From a virus: DNA of 64,000 nucleotides. Location: positions 1 to 64,000 of the IMG/VR virus record IMGVR_UViG_3300007538_000022; one strand, given 5' to 3'. The translations under genes and the position numbers were made by a program. Shown in pieces: positions 1,716-13,101 of the stretch. The notes beneath the pieces were generated by a model that saw nothing but the letters and a program-made list of their open reading frames with translations, did no database searches and was not told the origin of the DNA. Each line of letters starts with the position of its first letter. The first letter of the stretch is position 1.

Positions 1716-2912
1716 TTAAATTCTTGGGTCTGGATAAGTTAATCTGATGTAATCTAAAAATAAAATAGGCTCATACGACCCGAATCTAGAAGTCCATCCT
1801 CCTACCCGTGCGCCTGTTGTATTTACTGGTAAATTACTTGAAATTGTTTCGGAAAGAATGCTAGTATTATCCATAGTTCTAACATCTAATGATGCACTTG
1901 TAACATCTGAGTTAATTAATATTGACACTTTATACCAAGTTGCTTCAGATAGCCCGACTGAATTAGTACCTGTTGTTTTAGAATTGTTATTTGCAGTTTT
2001 AAATTGGCCAATGTTTGTACTACCATCGTACCAAAATGTAGCACCATCTGCGGAAAAATCAATATTTCCCCATGAATCGTTAAAACCTATAGTGTATCGC
2101 ACAGTTGCTAAATCAGCAGGGTCAGTAGGAGTCCTAAAAACTGCTTCAAACAACATATTAGCTTCTAACTTAAACATTTCTTCAGTACCTAACCATCCAC
2201 TTGAGCCAGAAGTAGTACCTGTATTTCCTTTAAGACAAATAATACCGGGATGATTTTGAGAAAATGCTGCCATATCTGCAGCATCTACTGCGCCAATTGC
2301 TGCATTTGCAAGACCTGTAGTGAATGGTGATGTTTGCGATGCAGGTGACGTATAATAGTCATTGAAAATAACAATATTGTTGTTTGACACTTCTGACGGG
2401 ATCCAGTTAGAACCGTCCCACACTAATGCTTGCCCTATAGCCGGGGCAGTTGTAACAGTATCTACATCGTTGAATAAATTAATCGATGACGTATCTACAG
2501 TTCCCGGTTCTCCTTGAGGTCCTTGAAGTCCTTGAGGTCCTGGTTCACCTTGAGGTCCTTGTGGACCCACTAATGTTGCAAGCCATTCAGCTTCTGAGCC
2601 GATAAATCCTCCATTAACCGCTACTTCATATGCAGACGGTCCTTCAAGCGGAAGTGATGCATCGTCTGGATTAATCCAGATACTTCCATCAGCAATTGTT
2701 TGATCGATAGTTGGATCAGTAATTTGAACATATATTGGACTTTCAACATTATTATTTGCAAAATAAGTAAGATCATTCCATGCAGTAAGTCCGTTACCTA
2801 TTTTAAATAATTTAGCTGAAGTATCATACCCAATTTCGCCTTCGTGGAGAATTGGGTTTTTAGAAGACCAATTTGTAGTTGTGTCTCTTCGTAATTGTAT
2901 AGTAACAGCCAT
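1716..2912 (-). CDS. tail fibre protein with collagen-like segment
   Basis: 398 residues. The N-terminus (TIQLRRDTTTNW, then LHEGEIGYDT and KIGNGLTAWNDL) is the small domain found at the start of many phage fibre and Mtd-like proteins. Around residues 115-138 there is a Gly-X-Y run of Gly-Pro-Gln and Gly-Glu-Pro triplets, a collagen-like trimeric stalk. The C-terminal 210 residues look like a concanavalin/LamG-like beta sandwich (VRYTIGFNDSWGNIDFS, TWYKVSILIN, FLDYIRLTYP), plausibly the receptor-binding head. A strong AGAGG ribosome site precedes the ATG. A hairpin and a GATAAATA motif lie upstream. Confidence 0.82.
   Translation of the reverse strand: MAVTIQLRRDTTTNWSSKNPILHEGEIGYDTSAKLFKIGNGLTAWNDLTYFANNNVESPIYVQITDPTIDQTIADGSIWINPDDASLPLEGPSAYEVAVNGGFIGSEAEWLATLVGPQGPQGEPGPQGLQGPQGEPGTVDTSSINLFNDVDTVTTAPAIGQALVWDGSNWIPSEVSNNNIVIFNDYYTSPASQTSPFTTGLANAAIGAVDAADMAAFSQNHPGIICLKGNTGTTSGSSGWLGTEEMFKLEANMLFEAVFRTPTDPADLATVRYTIGFNDSWGNIDFSADGATFWYDGSTNIGQFKTANNNSKTTGTNSVGLSEATWYKVSILINSDVTSASLDVRTMDNTSILSETISSNLPVNTTGARVGGWTSRFGSYEPILFLDYIRLTYPDPRI
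2503..2571 (-). repeat. collagen-coding Gly-X-Y repeat
   Basis: Imperfect 9-base DNA repeat (CCTTGAGGT and variants on the plus strand) encoding Gly-Pro-Gln / Gly-Glu-Pro triplets of the fibre protein. Such repeats in phage fibres form trimeric stalks and often vary in length between relatives. Confidence 0.8.
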
Positions 2913-2941
2913 AAAAACCTCTCATTTTAAAATTATAAAAT

Positions 2942-2967
2942 GGTGCTTTACTATTATTTAAAGCACC
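2942..2967 (-). terminator. hairpin between folE and the fibre gene
   Basis: Perfect 9-bp stem GGTGCTTTA / TAAAGCACC with an 8-base loop, followed on the minus strand by ATTTTATAATTTT. It fits a terminator for the folE transcript. It lies downstream of the GATAAATA motif at 2981, so it would also sit in the leader of any fibre transcript started there. Confidence 0.6.
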
Positions 2968-2980
2968 GTATCATTTATAA

Positions 2981-2988
2981 TATTTATC
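2981..2988 (-). promoter_or_regulatory. candidate late promoter GATAAATA
   Basis: The minus strand reads GATAAATA, one base from the T4 late promoter core TATAAATA, about 70 bases upstream of the fibre gene start and just past the folE stop. Similar octamers precede other virion genes here. The motif is short, and chance occurrence in AT-rich DNA is expected, so confidence is modest. Confidence 0.4.
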
Positions 2989-3672
2989 TTATGCGGTTTT
3001 ATTTACGATATTCATAAATTCAAGACGTAAACTATGATCTGTTTTAAATGCTCCCCCAAGTTTTGATGTAACTGTACTTGAACCAGTATCCTCAACACCT
3101 CTAGCAGCAACACAGTAATGTTTTGCATCAATTACTACTGCAATATGATCTGTTTCCAGAATATATTGTAAAGCATAATATACTTGCTCAGTTAATCTCT
3201 CTTGAATTTGTGGTCTTTTTGCAAAATATTCAACAACTCGATTAATTTTTGATAATCCTAACACTTTGTTTTTTGGAATATATGCCACAGTTGCAAAACC
3301 GTCGATTACTACGCCATGATGCTCGCATTGACTTTGAACATTGACATTTTTCTCAACAACCATTTCATCATAACCCATTTTATTTTCAACAGTTGTACAT
3401 TTTGGAAAATGTTCAGGTATTAACCCCCACATTGTTTCTAAAACCCACATTTTTGCCATTCGTTTCGGTGTTTCAGCTAAACTATCATCTGTCAAATCGA
3501 GGCCCATTGTTTTCCAAATTTCAGTAAAATGATGTGTTAATTTTTCAATTTTAACACCTGAAGCCTCGTTAAGTTCATAAATTGACAAAGGTGTTTCTAC
3601 ATTACATTTTACTAAATGTTTATGAATTTCTTGTCCTAAAATTGGATCTGTTTTATTTATTTGAAATGCCAT
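2989..3672 (-). CDS. folE: GTP cyclohydrolase I
   Basis: Converts GTP to 7,8-dihydroneopterin triphosphate, the first step of folate and 7-deazaguanine synthesis. The start is ATG 3672 (MAFQINK, 227 residues): TTAGGAGATATT precedes it, while the longer frame to 3774 would overlap the neighbouring gene. Family hallmarks are clear: CEHH at 116-119 and HYC at 185-187, giving zinc ligands C116, H119 and C187; QERLT at 157-161; and ARGVEDTGSST near 190-200. Length matches bacterial FolE. With QueD (51175) and the DpdA-like enzyme (7097) in the same genome, the likely purpose is preQ0-type base synthesis rather than folate. QueE and QueC are not in this window. Confidence 0.95.
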   Translation of the reverse strand: MAFQINKTDPILGQEIHKHLVKCNVETPLSIYELNEASGVKIEKLTHHFTEIWKTMGLDLTDDSLAETPKRMAKMWVLETMWGLIPEHFPKCTTVENKMGYDEMVVEKNVNVQSQCEHHGVVIDGFATVAYIPKNKVLGLSKINRVVEYFAKRPQIQERLTEQVYYALQYILETDHIAVVIDAKHYCVAARGVEDTGSSTVTSKLGGAFKTDHSLRLEFMNIVNKTA

Positions 3673-3685
3673 AATATCTCCTAAT

Positions 3686-4225
3686 TTACTTATAAGTATC
3701 TTCCCAGGGGAATACAATCCATTCGTTATTTTCAGCTTTATTAATTTCTTTCCAACAATATGATACACCATCAAAACTTGATACTAGGTTATCTATTATT
3801 ACTGAAAATCTTACATTATGACCCCAGACGGTATCCCATACATTAGTTGAATCTAGCATACACGATCGTTGCCAGTCATCTTTCAACCAGTTAAATGTAG
3901 CTCCTGTGTCATTAATGTCGTCTACTACTAATATTTGTTTCCGTTCATTAGTAATAGTAGGTTCTACTAACGGATGTGAACTAACATAACCGTAAGCATC
4001 CTCGCTCATCCACAAATTACTTTCTAACCCTACCATATCTCGCAAACTAATTCCTAATCCATACATTGGGATTTTCAACCGATGGCTTAACATTACTGCT
4101 AACGGTAACCCTCCTCTAGCAATACCTACAATATAATCAGGACGCCAGTTATCGTTGTACATTTTAAGAATAATACTATTAATTGCAGTATCAATATCTT
4201 TCCATGTTAAGTGCGTAAGGTTCAT
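3686..4225 (-). CDS. purine-type phosphoribosyltransferase
   Basis: 179 residues with the type I PRTase fold signature: ARGGLPLAVMLSHRL near 36-50 and the PRPP loop VVDDINDTGAT at 100-110. Such enzymes join PRPP to a nucleobase; the short size and the YIVGIARGG start resemble xanthine/hypoxanthine-guanine PRTases (Gpt/Hpt) common in phages. The ATG overlaps the stop of the upstream dUTPase gene as ATGA, so translation is probably coupled. Substrate cannot be assigned from sequence. It could salvage purines or a modified base for the neighbouring deazaguanine pathway; that link is inference. Confidence 0.85.
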   Translation of the reverse strand: MNLTHLTWKDIDTAINSIILKMYNDNWRPDYIVGIARGGLPLAVMLSHRLKIPMYGLGISLRDMVGLESNLWMSEDAYGYVSSHPLVEPTITNERKQILVVDDINDTGATFNWLKDDWQRSCMLDSTNVWDTVWGHNVRFSVIIDNLVSSFDGVSYCWKEINKAENNEWIVFPWEDTYK

Positions 4226-6223: not shown

Positions 6224-6589
6224 TTACTCGTGATAATATTCGATTATACCATCTGACTCTCCATCTTCTGAAACTACTACAATGTAATCTCTTGAAGAGC
6301 CGTATGTAGTTAATAAAAAATTGTTTAATATAATAGTTGCAATTGATTCACAACTGTGAGTATTTAGCTCTTGATTTTTTAGAAAGTTATTTAAATTCCA
6401 TTTTACTAAGAAAAATTCCAATTCTCTATCTAAGTGTGTAACAGATATTTTGACGCTAACTTTAAAAATATGTCTATGCATGTTTTCTAAAAATGAAATT
6501 TTAGGATCAATTTTCCCAGCATCTGGGTAACAATGAAATCCTTCAAATTCTGTTCGAACTTTTATAAATTGTTTTATTTTTGCACTCAT
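6224..6589 (-). CDS. small QueD-like (T-fold) conserved phage protein
   Basis: 121 residues. EFEGFHCYPDA, then NMHRHIFKVSVKISV, resembles the HGHSYKVEV strand of QueD/6-pyruvoyl-tetrahydropterin synthases. A helix (SCESIATIILNNFL) and VVVSEDGESDG fit the QueD order PTAENIAK then VWET. The Cys-x3-HGH zinc/catalytic motif is incomplete (HRH only), so it may not have the QueD reaction; a true QueD is at 51175. Similar proteins occur widely in phages without a known role. Position in an operon with the DpdA-like gene suggests work on the same base. QueD relation is inference from pattern. Confidence 0.55.
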   Translation of the reverse strand: MSAKIKQFIKVRTEFEGFHCYPDAGKIDPKISFLENMHRHIFKVSVKISVTHLDRELEFFLVKWNLNNFLKNQELNTHSCESIATIILNNFLLTTYGSSRDYIVVVSEDGESDGIIEYYHE

Positions 6590-6591
6590 AC

Positions 6592-7113
6592 TTAATATAT
6601 CACTGTGTCATTAGAATATTCAGACCAAGATGTAAATTTTTCTCTAGGAAGCAACGAATGTAAAGAGTGGCACCATACACCTGGATTAGATTCTTTAAAA
6701 TTTCTATCATCAATTTTAATCATGGTATTATAATTCCAGTGAGATACATATGGAATAGGAACTCTTATTTGTGGAATAAAGTTATCCCATTCACATAATC
6801 CACCTTCTAAAAAGTCTGCTGCATGCGATACATGAATGTCTAAACTACACAAAATATCTTTTTCTAAAAAATAACGAATCATAGTTTCCCACTCTAAATA
6901 ATCATCACTAGATGTTGGATTAAAACTATGATTAGCACCGAAAAATAGATGAGTACACGAATTGTCCTCCATGTAATGTACAATATCTGAAAATGATTGT
7001 ATTCCTACAATAAATAAAGTTTTTTGATTATATGCTGGAGTTTTTTCAACTTCGTATCCAGTAAAAAACGTAGCATTATTAACTGTGTTATTTGAATTAT
7101 ATGTTCTCTTCAT
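6592..7113 (-). CDS. conserved phage protein of unknown function (DpdA neighbour)
   Basis: 173 residues, cytosolic, no membrane segment. Recognisable conserved stretches are TLFIVGIQSFSDIV, CTHLFFGANHSF, NFIPQIRVPIPYVSHWNYNT, IKIDDRNFKESNPGVWCH and SLLPREKFTSW. I recognise this as a family present in many T4-like marine phages with no assigned function. The start overlaps the end of the DpdA-like gene by 17 bases, and the stop lies two bases from the QueD-like gene, so the three genes are tightly coupled. A role in base modification is suggested only by this linkage. Confidence 0.6.
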   Translation of the reverse strand: MKRTYNSNNTVNNATFFTGYEVEKTPAYNQKTLFIVGIQSFSDIVHYMEDNSCTHLFFGANHSFNPTSSDDYLEWETMIRYFLEKDILCSLDIHVSHAADFLEGGLCEWDNFIPQIRVPIPYVSHWNYNTMIKIDDRNFKESNPGVWCHSLHSLLPREKFTSWSEYSNDTVIY

Positions 7114-8644
7114 TTTCTAAAATCTCTAAGTTATGTTCTTGGTCTTCTGAAAAATCAGTTTCTTCAGATTGATCTACTTCTTCAAAAAATAAACTGTAAT
7201 TTGTGGACGAATTTATAGTTCTTTTCCCAACAGTTCCACGGGTTCCTATAATTTGCATCCAAAATTTACTATACTTTTCAATAGTTTTAATTGATGTATC
7301 TCTGTCTTTACACGAAAAGATTTCATCTACTAAATCTCTAAATAAAATTCGATTAAAATTTTCTTTTACTAGCATATTGGGAATTATACCGGTATCATAC
7401 CGACGATTTGCTTCCTGAACAGCATTAACATGAGCCCATACGTTATGGCACATTTGCATAGCATATGCAAATCCATCCCATGAAGTTACACTCATTTTAC
7501 CAACTTTATTTATTTGCCCAGGTGCATAAAAACAAATATCATTTATTTTTAACCCAGCAGTTATCGGCGAATCGTCAAATCGACTAAAAAACCCATCTTG
7601 AAGCATTGCTTGCCTAAAATTACGAGTATCAGCATGATATTTACGATCATCTATACCTGGTACCATCCGATAAACCCATTTGCTTCTATCGTCGATTTCA
7701 TATTGAGTATAAATTTGTCCATTAGCAGATGCTAAAAACGGACTTGCACAGTCGAATGTAATTGTAAACTTGGGATTATGGTATTTTCGTACTGCACGTT
7801 GAATATCAGTTAGCATAACAGCCCATTCCAATCGCGAAGTGCCTAAAAAATGCATAAAATCATGGATACCTTCTTCTAATAATCCATCATGAATTATTTC
7901 AACTATCCTATGCAACACTAAATGAATATCACACATATTTTGTCCACCCATTGCCCATCCATTAAAATGAGTTTCTGGAAATTGATTTGGATCACAATAA
8001 TGTTTCATTCGTTTGTACCAATCGTGTGCTTCAGTATGATTTTCACCTTGAAGTACATTTAGGAATTTACAATTACCGTTGCGGTGATGTATAAACCAAT
8101 CGTTATTAATGTAAGTACCTTGAACTGCATCTTCATAAGATGTAATTCCAGTAGCATCTCGTCCTGCAGGAGATCTACATACCCATGCAGGGATATCTAA
8201 AATCATTCCATAATCCATAAACGCATCCATCCAAGTTAAAACTTGTTCGCGTTTCTTTTGTGCTTTCGGACAAGCTGGATTTTTCCAGTCACCTTCCCAA
8301 ACACCTTTCCCTATTTGGAATCCACCCGAGTCACCTAGTAACCAACTATTATCACGATCACGATTTCTGACCATATCTTCCTTTATTACATACTTTGTAA
8401 CATTTAAATCAGCATGACCTGCTGAATATAATGACCATTTATATTTAAATTGTCCTTGAGTTGGATTTAAATAATTAAGACTTTCAACTCCATGTGTTAA
8501 ACTAGGTGGTAATCTAGTAGCAGGAATATAATTACTGTTATTTCGTTGTCTACCAATAAATGCTGCAAAAAACCCGCTGATTGCAGGTAAAAAAACAGCA
8601 TAATCTTTTTGTTCATATGTTAAATTTGTATTCATTCTTTCCAT
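7097..8644 (-). CDS. dpdA: TGT/DpdA-like deazaguanine DNA transglycosylase
   Basis: 515 residues related to tRNA-guanine transglycosylase. TGT landmarks appear in order: DSGGFQ at 105-110 (active-site Asp105), ILDIPAW ending near 154, VLQG near 197, GWAMGG at 229-234 (TGT glycine loop), HFLG at 265-268, and FDCASPF with D298 in the place of the TGT nucleophile (DCxxPT). The TGT zinc site is not evident. Phage enzymes of this type (DpdA) exchange guanine in DNA for preQ0-like bases, protecting phage DNA from restriction. With FolE and QueD in the genome this reading is favoured over tRNA modification. ATG 8644 is used; a second ATG at residue 4 is possible. Confidence 0.75.
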   Translation of the reverse strand: MERMNTNLTYEQKDYAVFLPAISGFFAAFIGRQRNNSNYIPATRLPPSLTHGVESLNYLNPTQGQFKYKWSLYSAGHADLNVTKYVIKEDMVRNRDRDNSWLLGDSGGFQIGKGVWEGDWKNPACPKAQKKREQVLTWMDAFMDYGMILDIPAWVCRSPAGRDATGITSYEDAVQGTYINNDWFIHHRNGNCKFLNVLQGENHTEAHDWYKRMKHYCDPNQFPETHFNGWAMGGQNMCDIHLVLHRIVEIIHDGLLEEGIHDFMHFLGTSRLEWAVMLTDIQRAVRKYHNPKFTITFDCASPFLASANGQIYTQYEIDDRSKWVYRMVPGIDDRKYHADTRNFRQAMLQDGFFSRFDDSPITAGLKINDICFYAPGQINKVGKMSVTSWDGFAYAMQMCHNVWAHVNAVQEANRRYDTGIIPNMLVKENFNRILFRDLVDEIFSCKDRDTSIKTIEKYSKFWMQIIGTRGTVGKRTINSSTNYSLFFEEVDQSEETDFSEDQEHNLEILENEENI

Positions 8645-9739: not shown

Positions 9740-10726
9740 TTATGAAAAATCAAATAAATCATTAAAGTGATTATCTCGTTTAGTTGAATCGATATCGTAA
9801 TTCAGTACTCCAATTAAGTTAGAGATCTTGTTATCTATAATAGTTTCAGACATTGCATCGTCGTCAAATGGCAATTCTTTAAACCATTCTGGTAATCGTA
9901 GTTCGTCAGTTGGATATGCAATAGAAGTCCACCCTAATGGGTTTGATCTAAGCTTGCAAACAATAACTTTCATTCCATCAACAATTTCCATTGAATGTTT
10001 GTCGCTATTTGCTCTACGTAGTGAGTTCCAGTTCAATGAAGCTCTAATATGCCCTGGCATATTAGCTTTCCCTAATCGTTCTTCTAATTCTTTATAGTGA
10101 GCTACATTGTTAGCACGTTTAGGAGTACCTTTATCCCATCCAGGCATGTCTTTAAATTTCTTTCTAAAAACAGTAATTTGTTCCAATATATCTTCTTCAG
10201 ATGATTCTTGTAAAACCATTAATAAAATTTTCATTAAAAATTCTTGCATATAGTCGGGAGTATCTGATCTACGTAAATCTAACCCCATAGCCTTAACTTT
10301 ACCTGGCTTACCATCTACATCTTTACGCTTCCCTTCTTCATCGTATACTAATGCAGCATATCGTTTTTTTGTGATGTATAATCCACTTAATGCAACAATC
10401 TCTCTACCTGCAGCAATAACATCCGATCTTGCTTTCCCACAATGAAATGCTTTTTCCATAAATTTTGGAAATGAAGAATTAGCTTGTTCGCATATTTGAT
10501 CATATAATACAACAACTTTTTCTTTATCCCAGGGTAACGTACCGTTGTTTATTTCGTTTTCAAATAATGGAAATGCGGAAAAATACACAGAGTCGGTATT
10601 GTGTACAAGTGATCCATTTGCAAAAAAGAATGGATCTTGATTAGCTATCGATACATCATAAACATAATCCTCTGTAGTATCTAATTTTTCTACACTTTTA
10701 ACTCGTTGTCTTATTGTTTCAGCCAT
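9740..10726 (-). CDS. 43: DNA polymerase gp43, C-terminal half with split-intein C fragment
   Basis: 328 residues. Residues 1-43 are the C-terminal part of a split intein: DYVYDVSIANQDPFFFANG, ending in Val-His-Asn. Extein sequence starts at Thr44 as TDSVYF, the second half of the family B polymerase motif C (YGDTDS). The rest (KKRYAALVYDEE, MGLDLRRSDTP and beyond) is the gp43 thumb and C-terminus, 285 residues. Joined to the 602-residue N-extein it gives 887 residues, close to T4 gp43 (898). The polymerase can only be active after trans-splicing with the product of 10930. The ATG overlaps the end of a decayed endonuclease frame. Confidence 0.92.
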   Translation of the reverse strand: MAETIRQRVKSVEKLDTTEDYVYDVSIANQDPFFFANGSLVHNTDSVYFSAFPLFENEINNGTLPWDKEKVVVLYDQICEQANSSFPKFMEKAFHCGKARSDVIAAGREIVALSGLYITKKRYAALVYDEEGKRKDVDGKPGKVKAMGLDLRRSDTPDYMQEFLMKILLMVLQESSEEDILEQITVFRKKFKDMPGWDKGTPKRANNVAHYKELEERLGKANMPGHIRASLNWNSLRRANSDKHSMEIVDGMKVIVCKLRSNPLGWTSIAYPTDELRLPEWFKELPFDDDAMSETIIDNKISNLIGVLNYDIDSTKRDNHFNDLFDFS

Positions 10727-10887
10727 TTAACACACCTTTGTATAGTTTCATGCATATTATTCTTAAATTCTGATTCCCAAATTACTAAAGTAGGAATATT
10801 TCTTTCAAATAATAATGCGTTAATTTTTTCTTTATCTTTTTGCCAAATATCTCTAGCAAGTAAATTTGCCTGTCTATGATAATAACC
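10711..10887 (-). pseudogene. remnant of a Vsr-like homing endonuclease between split-intein halves
   Basis: 58 codons open after a TAA, with no start codon at the left end. The translation starts GYYHRQANLLARDIWQKD, continues to NIPTLVIWESEF, and ends ETIQRCVKWLKQ. The pattern HRQ-rD-x-KD, then L-I-W-E-x-E matches the C-terminal part of Vsr/EDxHD-type endonucleases, where such motifs carry catalytic residues. The N-terminal half is missing, so it should be inactive. Its place between two halves of a split-intein gene matches the fractured-gene arrangement known from marine phage sequences. The family call is from pattern only. Confidence 0.6.
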
Positions 10888-10929
10888 TTACTCCTAATCA
10901 AGTTAAAAAAGCCAAAGATATAAAGAAAA

Positions 10930-13101
10930 TTAAGAATCTATAGAGATAATCAAATCATTATCTTCTAACTCTGTAGGTTTAACTTCGACTGTAACCCCAT
11001 CTCTATCAACTATTAAACTATGATCTTCTGTAACAGTCACAGAGCTACCGTCTTCCATTGTAACCTTGTATAATTGTTTAGATGTTTTATGTCGCATAAC
11101 ATACGCAATCTCACCAAATACAGCCTCATCTTCGTGTGCATTATATCCTAATACTTTTAGATCATGCTGTGCTTCTGTAGGAATAGCATATTCCTTGCCA
11201 TTATCTTGTTCTACTTTATACTGAATTTGATCAAACAAGTCTGATATAGGCATATCTCCTTTGTTCGTGTTTAATATAGTATCACCTATAACAGAGTCAC
11301 CATATATAACTGCTTTGCCGACATGGTCATAATCACCTGAAATTATCTTATTAACTTCTGCACTCATATGACGAACAATGCTTCTACCTGTTAATGTAGT
11401 AGATTGCCCTATACGTTTATCAAAAAATCGACAGCCTTGGTTTAATATAGCTCCATAAAGACTGTTTAAGTTAATTTTCTTTACAAGTTGGCGTTTATCC
11501 CAAAATGCAGCTTCTAACGTGTTTCCTGCTTGATCTGCTTTTTTCTTTTTAGCTTGAAGCTCTTTCCTTTCAGCATACCATCGTTTTAACAAACCTGGAA
11601 TAACACCTTCAAATTCAGTAGTAAATATTGTTCCATTTGCAGAAAGCATCCATGGTACATTACTTTCAAATATGAATTTATATATTTCAGCACCACTAAA
11701 TGTATCGGATTTACCATTAGTCCAGTCAATTGTAATAGCTAGATCTTTTCTTTTGTCCATTACAGCTTCATATTCTAAACTACTAAATCGGCCTTCCCAT
11801 GCTGTTGCGAACTTTTTTTTGTTTAATACAACTTCTTCATGCAACATTTGCTCAGTATAGTCCTGCCTTAATTGACCTACAATAGTTTCAGGAGCCATAT
11901 TTAATGCTCTAATAACGCTAGGATACAGTGAATTTAAGTCCATCGATCCTATCCATTTGTGGAATCCTTTTTTAGGATAAGCTACATATGCACCTGCTGC
12001 TTGCACTGCTTGTTCCGATTTTGGAGATCTATTTGGTACTTGTAGTCCACGTTCGTGCGCTTCGTTAATAATAGCTTGTTCTGTTACAGCTACTGCTCCC
12101 ATTGTAGTCTGAAGTAATACGGTATTTGCGTGAGCAAGTTCGTTTGTTAAATCTATAAATTTAAGTTTTTTATCAAGTTTATTCAATAACACAGTATCTT
12201 GGATATTATATTCGATAAACTTTTTAAAATCATTATTATATAATTGGTCTAAAGTTCCATCGTATGGAACTTTAGTTTCATTAACTTCTAATTCCCCAAT
12301 TGCGTCTAATCGATACGAATGTCTTTCTTCGTATGTATACTTTCTATAAAGTTCTAAAGAATCTAAATGAATCCTTCCAACAAGATCATACGTTTTTGAA
12401 ATTTTGCCATATCTTTCAAATTCTCGTTTTTTAGGAAGTTGATTCCATAAACAGAATCGTCGAGTATCGTCTTTGCTCAATGCTTTTGCTACCCGATTAA
12501 CCGTATATGGAATATCAAAACTTTCAGAGTTCCATCCTGAAAGCACATCGGCATCTTCAATTAAAGTTAAAAATGAATCTAACATTTCTGCTTCAGAATT
12601 ATATAATATTACACCGTTGATGTCTTTAACTTCTTCAGCAGCTTGCTCCATTGTTAAGGTTTTTGGTGGTACAGCTAAACATACCATTGTATCTAACCAT
12701 TGCAAATATACAGATATAGCAGTAATTGGCATAAACGGGTCATTAGGTGATGCATAACCTTTAGTTGGATCAAAGTCTGTTTCAATGTCAAAAAATGCAA
12801 TGTTTAGCTTAGGTGAATCCTGATTTAAATAGTGTTCGCTTAAATTTTGGAATATTGGATTAATATCAGATTCATAAAGTACTGAATTTTTATTAATAGC
12901 TAGTTCTTTTCTAAAATCTTTAGTATTTTTACATACTATTCTTGAAAGTGGTGTATTGTATATACTCTTATATTTTCCCTTTTGATCTTCATAGTAAAAC
13001 GTATATTTCACAGGATAATCAACAAATTTACGGGAGCCGTTATGCCGTTCTACTATGCGTATAGTGTCGGCTTCTTTATCAAAAAATGCATCTATGTACA
13101 T
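10930..13101 (-). CDS. 43: DNA polymerase gp43, N-terminal half with split-intein N fragment
   Basis: 723 residues. Residues 1-602 are family B polymerase: exonuclease motif I FFDIETDFD with D105 and E107, ExoII NSESFDIPY from 191, ExoIII YNIQDT near 298-303, motif A DLNSLYPS at 388-395, and motif B KKINLNSLYG. The extein ends at Tyr-Gly-Asp. The intein N fragment (121 residues) starts with Ser (SVIGDTIL), and has block B in VTVTEDHSLIV. A Ser at intein position 1, not Cys, is less usual. The protein stops after DLIISIDS. The missing TDS half of motif C is encoded separately at 9740. GAGGTTTT precedes the ATG. Confidence 0.95.
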   Translation of the reverse strand: MYIDAFFDKEADTIRIVERHNGSRKFVDYPVKYTFYYEDQKGKYKSIYNTPLSRIVCKNTKDFRKELAINKNSVLYESDINPIFQNLSEHYLNQDSPKLNIAFFDIETDFDPTKGYASPNDPFMPITAISVYLQWLDTMVCLAVPPKTLTMEQAAEEVKDINGVILYNSEAEMLDSFLTLIEDADVLSGWNSESFDIPYTVNRVAKALSKDDTRRFCLWNQLPKKREFERYGKISKTYDLVGRIHLDSLELYRKYTYEERHSYRLDAIGELEVNETKVPYDGTLDQLYNNDFKKFIEYNIQDTVLLNKLDKKLKFIDLTNELAHANTVLLQTTMGAVAVTEQAIINEAHERGLQVPNRSPKSEQAVQAAGAYVAYPKKGFHKWIGSMDLNSLYPSVIRALNMAPETIVGQLRQDYTEQMLHEEVVLNKKKFATAWEGRFSSLEYEAVMDKRKDLAITIDWTNGKSDTFSGAEIYKFIFESNVPWMLSANGTIFTTEFEGVIPGLLKRWYAERKELQAKKKKADQAGNTLEAAFWDKRQLVKKINLNSLYGAILNQGCRFFDKRIGQSTTLTGRSIVRHMSAEVNKIISGDYDHVGKAVIYGDSVIGDTILNTNKGDMPISDLFDQIQYKVEQDNGKEYAIPTEAQHDLKVLGYNAHEDEAVFGEIAYVMRHKTSKQLYKVTMEDGSSVTVTEDHSLIVDRDGVTVEVKPTELEDNDLIISIDS

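What the first reader, a model, noticed from the sequence alone, without database searches (positions are those of the whole stretch)
10711..10887. Vsr-like homing endonuclease caught decaying between intein halves
A 58-codon frame with no start and no N-terminal half, but an HRQ...RD..KD and LVIWESEF pattern of Vsr/EDxHD-type endonucleases, sits exactly between the two split-intein genes. This is the fractured-gene layout with the endonuclease on the way out, a snapshot of the homing cycle.
Basis: partly seen in the sequence, partly recalled or inferred. Interest (0 to 1): 0.7.

Follow-up and report, generated by a model that had tools for sequence, protein, structure and literature searches.

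The report
Deleted homing endonuclease in split-intein polymerase
A phage DNA polymerase gene was broken in two by a mobile split intein, and the gene for the DNA-cutting enzyme that spread it has been lost by deletion, leaving only the last fifth; relatives show every stage, from intact enzyme to complete loss.

Summary
Confirmed. Window 10711-10887 (minus strand) is the C-terminal 58 codons of a ~316-aa Vsr-fold (EDxHD-type) homing endonuclease (HEN), lying between the halves of a split intein (YGD|TDS) in a T4 gp43-like DNA polymerase. Relatives carry the full HEN at the same place, and its predicted structure matches Vsr (Z 11.5) and I-Bth0305I (Z 10.0). The remnant has no start codon and none of the family-invariant acidic/His residues. 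A near-identical second contig shows the same truncation. The window's intein is sister to that of L002 (full HEN), while its polymerase belongs with intein-free polymerases: it arrived horizontally, then lost the HEN by one deletion. It is a deletion stump with a still-open frame, not a gene slowly filling with stops.

Among 50 distinct inteins, I found 33 with full HEN, 12 with C-terminal stumps of about 17-166 codons, 1 with none, 1 with the HEN replaced by a radical-SAM gene, and 3 continuous mini-inteins. All 12 stumps keep the HEN 3' end, which holds the ribosome-binding site and start codon of the downstream intein-C/polymerase-C gene. The layout is known ('fractured genes'; Aes123 PolB1). 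The directional erosion and re-fusion are the fresh part.

The parts
11296..13101 (-). N-terminal 602 codons of family-B DNA polymerase (T4 gp43-like), N-extein ending ...VIYGD
   Evidence: Pfam DNA_pol_B_exo1 E 3e-21 and DNA_pol_B E 8e-27, PHROG 262 DNA polymerase E 4e-145; boundary set by alignment with intein-free relatives
10930..11295 (-). IntN: 121-residue N-terminal half of the split intein (Ser1, ...TVTEDHS...), with stop codon
   Evidence: Pfam Intein_splicing E 2.3e-8, just under the curated cut-off; 87% identical to IntN of L002
10711..10887 (-). 58-codon C-terminal remnant of the homing endonuclease (equals residues ~257-314 of the L002 HEN), with stop codon; no start codon
   Evidence: 75% / 54% identical to the C-terminus of full HENs in L002 / L003; HEN profile 50.3 bits
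10884..10890 (.). deletion junction: homology to L002 ends at window 10887 on the IntN side (L002 4074) and resumes at 10884 (L002 5001); about 926 bp of the L002 layout are missing; the two L002 break regions share GTGTAA
   Evidence: blastn break points, sequences
10887..10943 (+). truncated end (18 aa + stop) of a 49-codon antisense ORF that is complete in L002; same deletion cut it
   Evidence: tblastn 83% over 18 aa, E 3e-4
10733..10739 (-). Shine-Dalgarno-like AAAGGTG inside the HEN remnant, serving the ATG of IntC-PolC at 10726
   Evidence: sequence; same arrangement in nearly all intact relatives
10598..10726 (-). IntC: 43-residue C-terminal half of the split intein (...FFFANGSLVHN)
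   Evidence: Pfam Intein_splicing positions 119-155, E 3e-4; 86% identical to L002
9740..10597 (-). C-terminal part of the DNA polymerase, C-extein starting TDSVYF, with stop codon
   Evidence: PHROG 1918 / 262 DNA polymerase E 3e-49 / 1e-47

Best explanation
The feature is the leftover 3' end of a Vsr-fold (EDxHD-type) homing endonuclease gene that sat between the two genes of a split intein in a phage DNA polymerase. Shown: an intein closely related to that of L002 is present in a polymerase that groups with intein-free ones, so it came horizontally; a deletion then removed the HEN promoter-proximal four fifths together with most of a small antisense ORF; the intein halves and their splicing motifs remain. 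Inferred: IntN and IntC still trans-splice the polymerase (both extein halves are intact and the enzyme is essential); the remnant makes no nuclease; the 3' tail was kept because it carries the ribosome-binding site and the ATG of the IntC-polymerase gene, so deletions that remove it are not tolerated. The element can no longer home by itself.
For: Full HENs of 316-318 aa at the same place in L002 and L003 and in most of about 100 further loci, all between IntN and IntC of PolB. AlphaFold model of the L002 HEN pLDDT 92.6; Vsr Z 11.5, I-Bth0305I Z 10.0. E196, D232, E241 and H248 are invariant and D245 over 90% conserved in 42 HENs; the remnant starts after them. No other HEN copy in the 90-kb record. 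Same junction in L001, 8 mismatches in 10,174 bases. Intein tree: window + L002 sisters 100/93; extein data reject that pairing, AU p 0.0008; window PolB lies in a 26-row set (SH-aLRT 99) made mostly of empty-site polymerases. All 12 stumps in the HEN-independent scan keep the 3' end; IntC start with SD lies in the last 13-34 nt of the HEN in nearly all intact loci.
Against: The remnant frame is still open and its pN/pS against L002 (0.46) is only slightly above that of intact HEN pairs (0.12-0.45, median 0.37), so nucleotide decay is not visible; a recent deletion fits, but selection on the peptide is not strictly excluded. The closest intact relative is 18% diverged at the DNA level, so the exact break points and the 6-bp repeat are approximate. 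Splicing and loss of homing are not measured.
Confidence: 0.93

Rival explanations
1. The 58-codon frame is a real small gene (for example a DNA-binding or regulatory peptide derived from the HEN C-terminus) kept by selection.
For: Frame open; pN/pS well below 1; several independent lineages keep stumps of about 57-79 codons.
Against: No start codon or ribosome site in the window; stumps elsewhere range from about 17 to 166 codons with different break points; L211 has a stop inside its stump; the constraint is explained by descent from an intact HEN and by the IntC start region.
Confidence: 0.04
2. The truncation is an assembly artefact and the phage has a complete HEN.
For: Metagenomic assemblies can collapse variable regions.
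Against: A second contig (L001) from IMG/VR has the same junction with only 8 mismatches in 10 kb; clean in-register break points occur in many other loci.
Confidence: 0.02
3. Chance resemblance: an AT-rich spacer frame with no relation to nucleases.
For: Open frames this long appear in 7.7% of shuffles of the interval; Pfam and NCBIfam are silent.
Against: 75% identity over 56 residues to a full HEN at the same locus; profile 50.3 bits against a best shuffled score of 10.4.
Confidence: 0.005

Closest known systems
Aeromonas phage Aes123 PolB1 split intein with 'putative VSR endonuclease' (JN377899)
   Same: gp43 split by IntN/IntC with a VSR-type endonuclease gene between them, overlapping the start of the C half by 17 nt; HEN 36% identical to L002 HEN. 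The Aes intein is a characterised split intein (PMC12707363).
   Different: Aes123 keeps the full 1062-nt HEN gene; the window keeps 58 codons. IntN identity to the window only 32%.
Fractured genes with split inteins and EDxHD endonucleases (Dassa et al. 2009, NAR 37:2560; cited in PMC12350094)
   Same: Free-standing Vsr-like HEN gene between genes for the two intein halves (layout as I recall it from the paper; full text not held).
   Different: Here the HEN is deleted; host gene is PolB.
I-Bth0305I (EDxHD homing endonuclease, PDB 3r3p) and E. coli Vsr (1cw0)
   Same: Fold of the HEN C-terminal domain, residues ~190-316.
   Different: I-Bth0305I is intron-encoded and Vsr is a mismatch-repair enzyme (general knowledge); 18-21% identity; the remnant holds only the last helix-strand-helix of that fold.
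Homing cycle of Goddard and Burt (review PMC1654191)
   Same: Empty, occupied, degenerate and HEN-free states coexist in one gene family.
   Different: In a split intein the HEN can be deleted without joining the halves, leaving a trans-splicing mini-intein; later in-frame fusion to a cis mini-intein is also seen (L252).

Membership tests
EDxHD / Vsr-like homing endonucleases | Vsr-type nuclease fold | tested here: met
   Full-length relative L002: Z 11.5 to Vsr, Z 10.0 to I-Bth0305I. For the remnant itself only by homology.
EDxHD / Vsr-like homing endonucleases | Catalytic acidic/His residues | tested here: not met
   Present in the family (E196, D232, E241, D245, H248); absent from the window remnant, which starts at residue ~257. 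The remnant is a pseudogene of the family, not a working member.
EDxHD / Vsr-like homing endonucleases | Match to curated Vsr profile | tested here: inconclusive
   No Pfam or NCBIfam Vsr match for remnant or full-length relatives.
Split inteins / fractured genes | IntN and IntC encoded on separate genes with the exteins | tested here: met
   Separate ORFs 10930-13101 and 9740-10726; intein domains in both.
Split inteins / fractured genes | Splicing motifs: nucleophile at position 1, block B TxxH, terminal HN, nucleophile +1 | tested here: met
   Ser1 (YGD|SVIGD), TVTEDHS, VHN|TDS.
Split inteins / fractured genes | Endonuclease gene between the halves | tested here: not met
   Only the 58-codon stump remains; full gene in relatives.
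Split inteins / fractured genes | Trans-splicing activity | not testable with these tools
   Needs expression of both halves.
Mobile intein (homing) | Intein and extein phylogenies disagree; empty sites exist | tested here: met
   AU p 0.0008 (extein) and 0.002 (intein); 80 loci with the uninterrupted site.

The most novel reading that the evidence does not exclude
In these polymerase split inteins the endonuclease erodes in one direction only: deletions between short direct repeats eat it from its 5' end up to the last 20 or so codons, which are protected because they contain the translation start of the C-half polymerase gene; when the erosion runs through in frame, the two genes re-fuse into a cis-splicing mini-intein whose linker is the former ribosome-binding site and start codon. 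The window is one rung of this ladder.
Probability: 0.6. Interest if true: 0.6.

Novelty: new member of a known kind. Interest (0 to 1): 0.47.

Why it matters
It turns the homing cycle of fractured genes from a drawing into a series that can be read base by base: empty polymerase, split intein with full endonuclease, stumps of a dozen lengths, endonuclease-free split mini-intein, and re-fused mini-intein. It gives a simple physical reason, an overlapping translation start, for which part of the endonuclease survives. It also offers a set of natural endonuclease-free, apparently cysteine-poor PolB split inteins of the kind used in protein ligation (for example 121 + 43 residues in the window).

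Tried and rejected
Pfam, NCBIfam and PDB sequence searches of the fragment and Pfam and NCBIfam searches of the full HEN: no relevant hit. Foldseek alone did not rank Vsr significantly; the realignment did. dN/dS as a decay clock: too few sites and too little contrast with intact HENs. Neutral survival of the open frame: 10-20 random substitutions leave it open in 22-43% of trials, so the open frame does not discriminate. A remote second HEN copy acting in trans: none in the 90-kb record, which may be incomplete. The antisense ORF as part of a general intein package: found only in L002 and the window. Dassa et al. 2009 could not be read.

Full report
What is there. The minus strand of the window carries a family-B DNA polymerase in two genes: PolN+IntN (10930-13101) and IntC+PolC (9740-10726). 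The insertion point is YGD|TDS, in the polymerase active-site motif, with Ser at intein position 1, a TVTEDHS block, VHN at the end and Thr at +1.

What the frame is. A scan of IMG/VR with the 58 residues found three loci. L001 is nearly the same phage (8 mismatches in 10,174 bases) with the same truncation. L002 and L003 have complete genes of 316 and 318 aa at the same place, between IntN and IntC of the same polymerase, and the window frame aligns with their last 58 residues at 75% and 54% identity. Using the full proteins, about 90 further relatives were found; every one that could be placed sits between IntN and IntC of a PolB. The AlphaFold model of the L002 protein (42-sequence alignment, pLDDT 92.6) has a helical N-terminal region and a C-terminal domain that aligns with Vsr (1cw0, Z 11.5, 114 residues) and with the EDxHD catalytic domain of I-Bth0305I (3r3p, Z 10.0, 95 residues). 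E196, D232, E241 and H248 are invariant and D245 is over 90% conserved. The window remnant covers only the last helix-strand-helix of that fold and none of these residues, so it cannot cut DNA (inference from the fold).

More than chance. A profile of the 42 HENs picks the frame at 50.3 bits out of 1,513 frames of the window; the runner-up has 4.9 bits and 20 shuffled windows give at most 10.4.

How it got there. In a tree of the extein parts the window polymerase lies among polymerases with an uninterrupted YGDTDS, of which 80 loci were fetched. Its intein is nevertheless the sister of the L002 intein (100/93), and the extein data reject window + L002 as a pair (AU p 0.0008). At amino-acid level IntN is 87% identical to L002 and PolN 63%. 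So the intein moved horizontally into this polymerase lineage. L002 has the full HEN, so the simplest reading is that the HEN was lost in the window lineage after the split. Against L002 the homology breaks at window 10887 and resumes at 10884, which removes about 926 bp: the front of a 49-codon antisense ORF present in L002 and HEN residues 1 to about 256. The two break regions in L002 share GTGTAA, which suggests, but at 18% divergence does not prove, deletion between short repeats. The same kind of event is unambiguous in a close pair: L225 (71-codon frame) against L231 (full HEN), 97% identical on both sides, with the junction inside a shared CTGGCA.

Is it decaying. The remaining frame has no stop, and its pN/pS against L002 is 0.46 compared with 0.12-0.45 (median 0.37) for the same part of intact HEN pairs and 0.125 for IntN of the same pair. 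The deletion is therefore probably young relative to the divergence from L002. 'Deletion stump' describes it better than 'caught decaying'.

The ladder of states. A scan with IntC, which does not depend on the HEN, gave 80 loci. After removal of near-duplicates 50 distinct inteins remain: 33 with full HEN, 9 with stumps recognised by profile (frames of 25-166 codons, window included), 3 with a tail only (L211, with a stop inside; L212; L238), 1 with nothing left (L215/L220 group), 1 with the HEN replaced by a radical-SAM gene (L232, Pfam E 1e-10), and 3 continuous mini-inteins (L241, L252, L265). Parsimony on the intein tree needs at least 16 changes between full and not-full (the tree is short and weakly resolved, so this is a rough count). 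In the IntC-scan set no full-length HEN was broken by stops or frameshifts.

Why the 3' end survives. All 12 stumps and tails keep the HEN 3' end and none keeps the 5' end. In nearly all intact loci listed the start codon of IntC lies 13-34 nt inside the HEN gene, with a Shine-Dalgarno-like AAGG/GAGG a few bases upstream, also in HEN codons. The exception is L002, where cargo genes separate HEN and IntC. The window keeps AAAGGTG...ATGG; L007 keeps AAAAGGTG...ATGG; where the tail is gone (L009, L012) a new AGGAGG with a TTG start is present. Selection for polymerase translation is thus a sufficient reason for one-sided erosion (inference; not tested experimentally).

Re-fusion. L252 is a single-gene intein almost identical to the split L253 with full HEN (97.8% and 93% DNA identity on the two sides). 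Its linker reads AAAGGTAAAAAAATGGAT, which is the L253 HEN tail with the IntC ribosome site and ATG, now read through in the IntC frame. This shows at least one passage between split and continuous forms; the preserved ATG and SD argue that it went from split to continuous.

What is known. PolB split inteins with a VSR-type endonuclease between the halves are annotated in Aeromonas phage Aes123 and relatives, the same arrangement lies in Campylobacter phage CP21, and the Aes123 and CP21 inteins have been studied (PMC12707363). The fractured-gene layout and the EDxHD family are credited to Dassa et al. 2009 (cited in PMC12350094). HEN loss after fixation is part of the homing-cycle model (PMC1654191). 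I did not find a description of one-sided erosion or re-fusion in the held literature; absence there is weak evidence of novelty.

Noticed in passing
L002 5181-6070 (same as L195): Four small ORFs sit between the HEN and IntC, so the gap in a split intein can carry cargo genes; the first appears to use the start codon embedded in the HEN tail.
   Followed up: partly
L232 about 2836-3995: A radical-SAM gene (Pfam PF04055, E 1e-10) occupies the place of the HEN between IntN and IntC.
   Followed up: partly
L045, L052, L059, L071, L081: Related split inteins with HEN sit two codons downstream, at YGDTD|S instead of YGD|TDS, so one intein/HEN family uses two neighbouring insertion points.
   Followed up: no
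L009 2606-3768 and L065 2015-3324: A second insertion interrupts PolN near query residue 191 (exonuclease domain), with a weak IntC-like match at its end: possibly a second intein.
   Followed up: no
L002 4021-4167 (-), window 10887-10943 (+): Small antisense ORF converging on the IntN stop, whole in L002 and truncated in the window; no other homologue in the loci fetched.
   Followed up: partly
L106 4585-6471: Two IntN-like and two IntC-like matches around one HEN: possibly tandem split inteins in one polymerase.
   Followed up: no
window 6224-8644 (-): A 121-aa and a 515-aa ORF look by eye like 7-deazaguanine pathway genes (QueD-like, tRNA-guanine transglycosylase-like), but Pfam gave no match at E 0.001.
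   Followed up: partly
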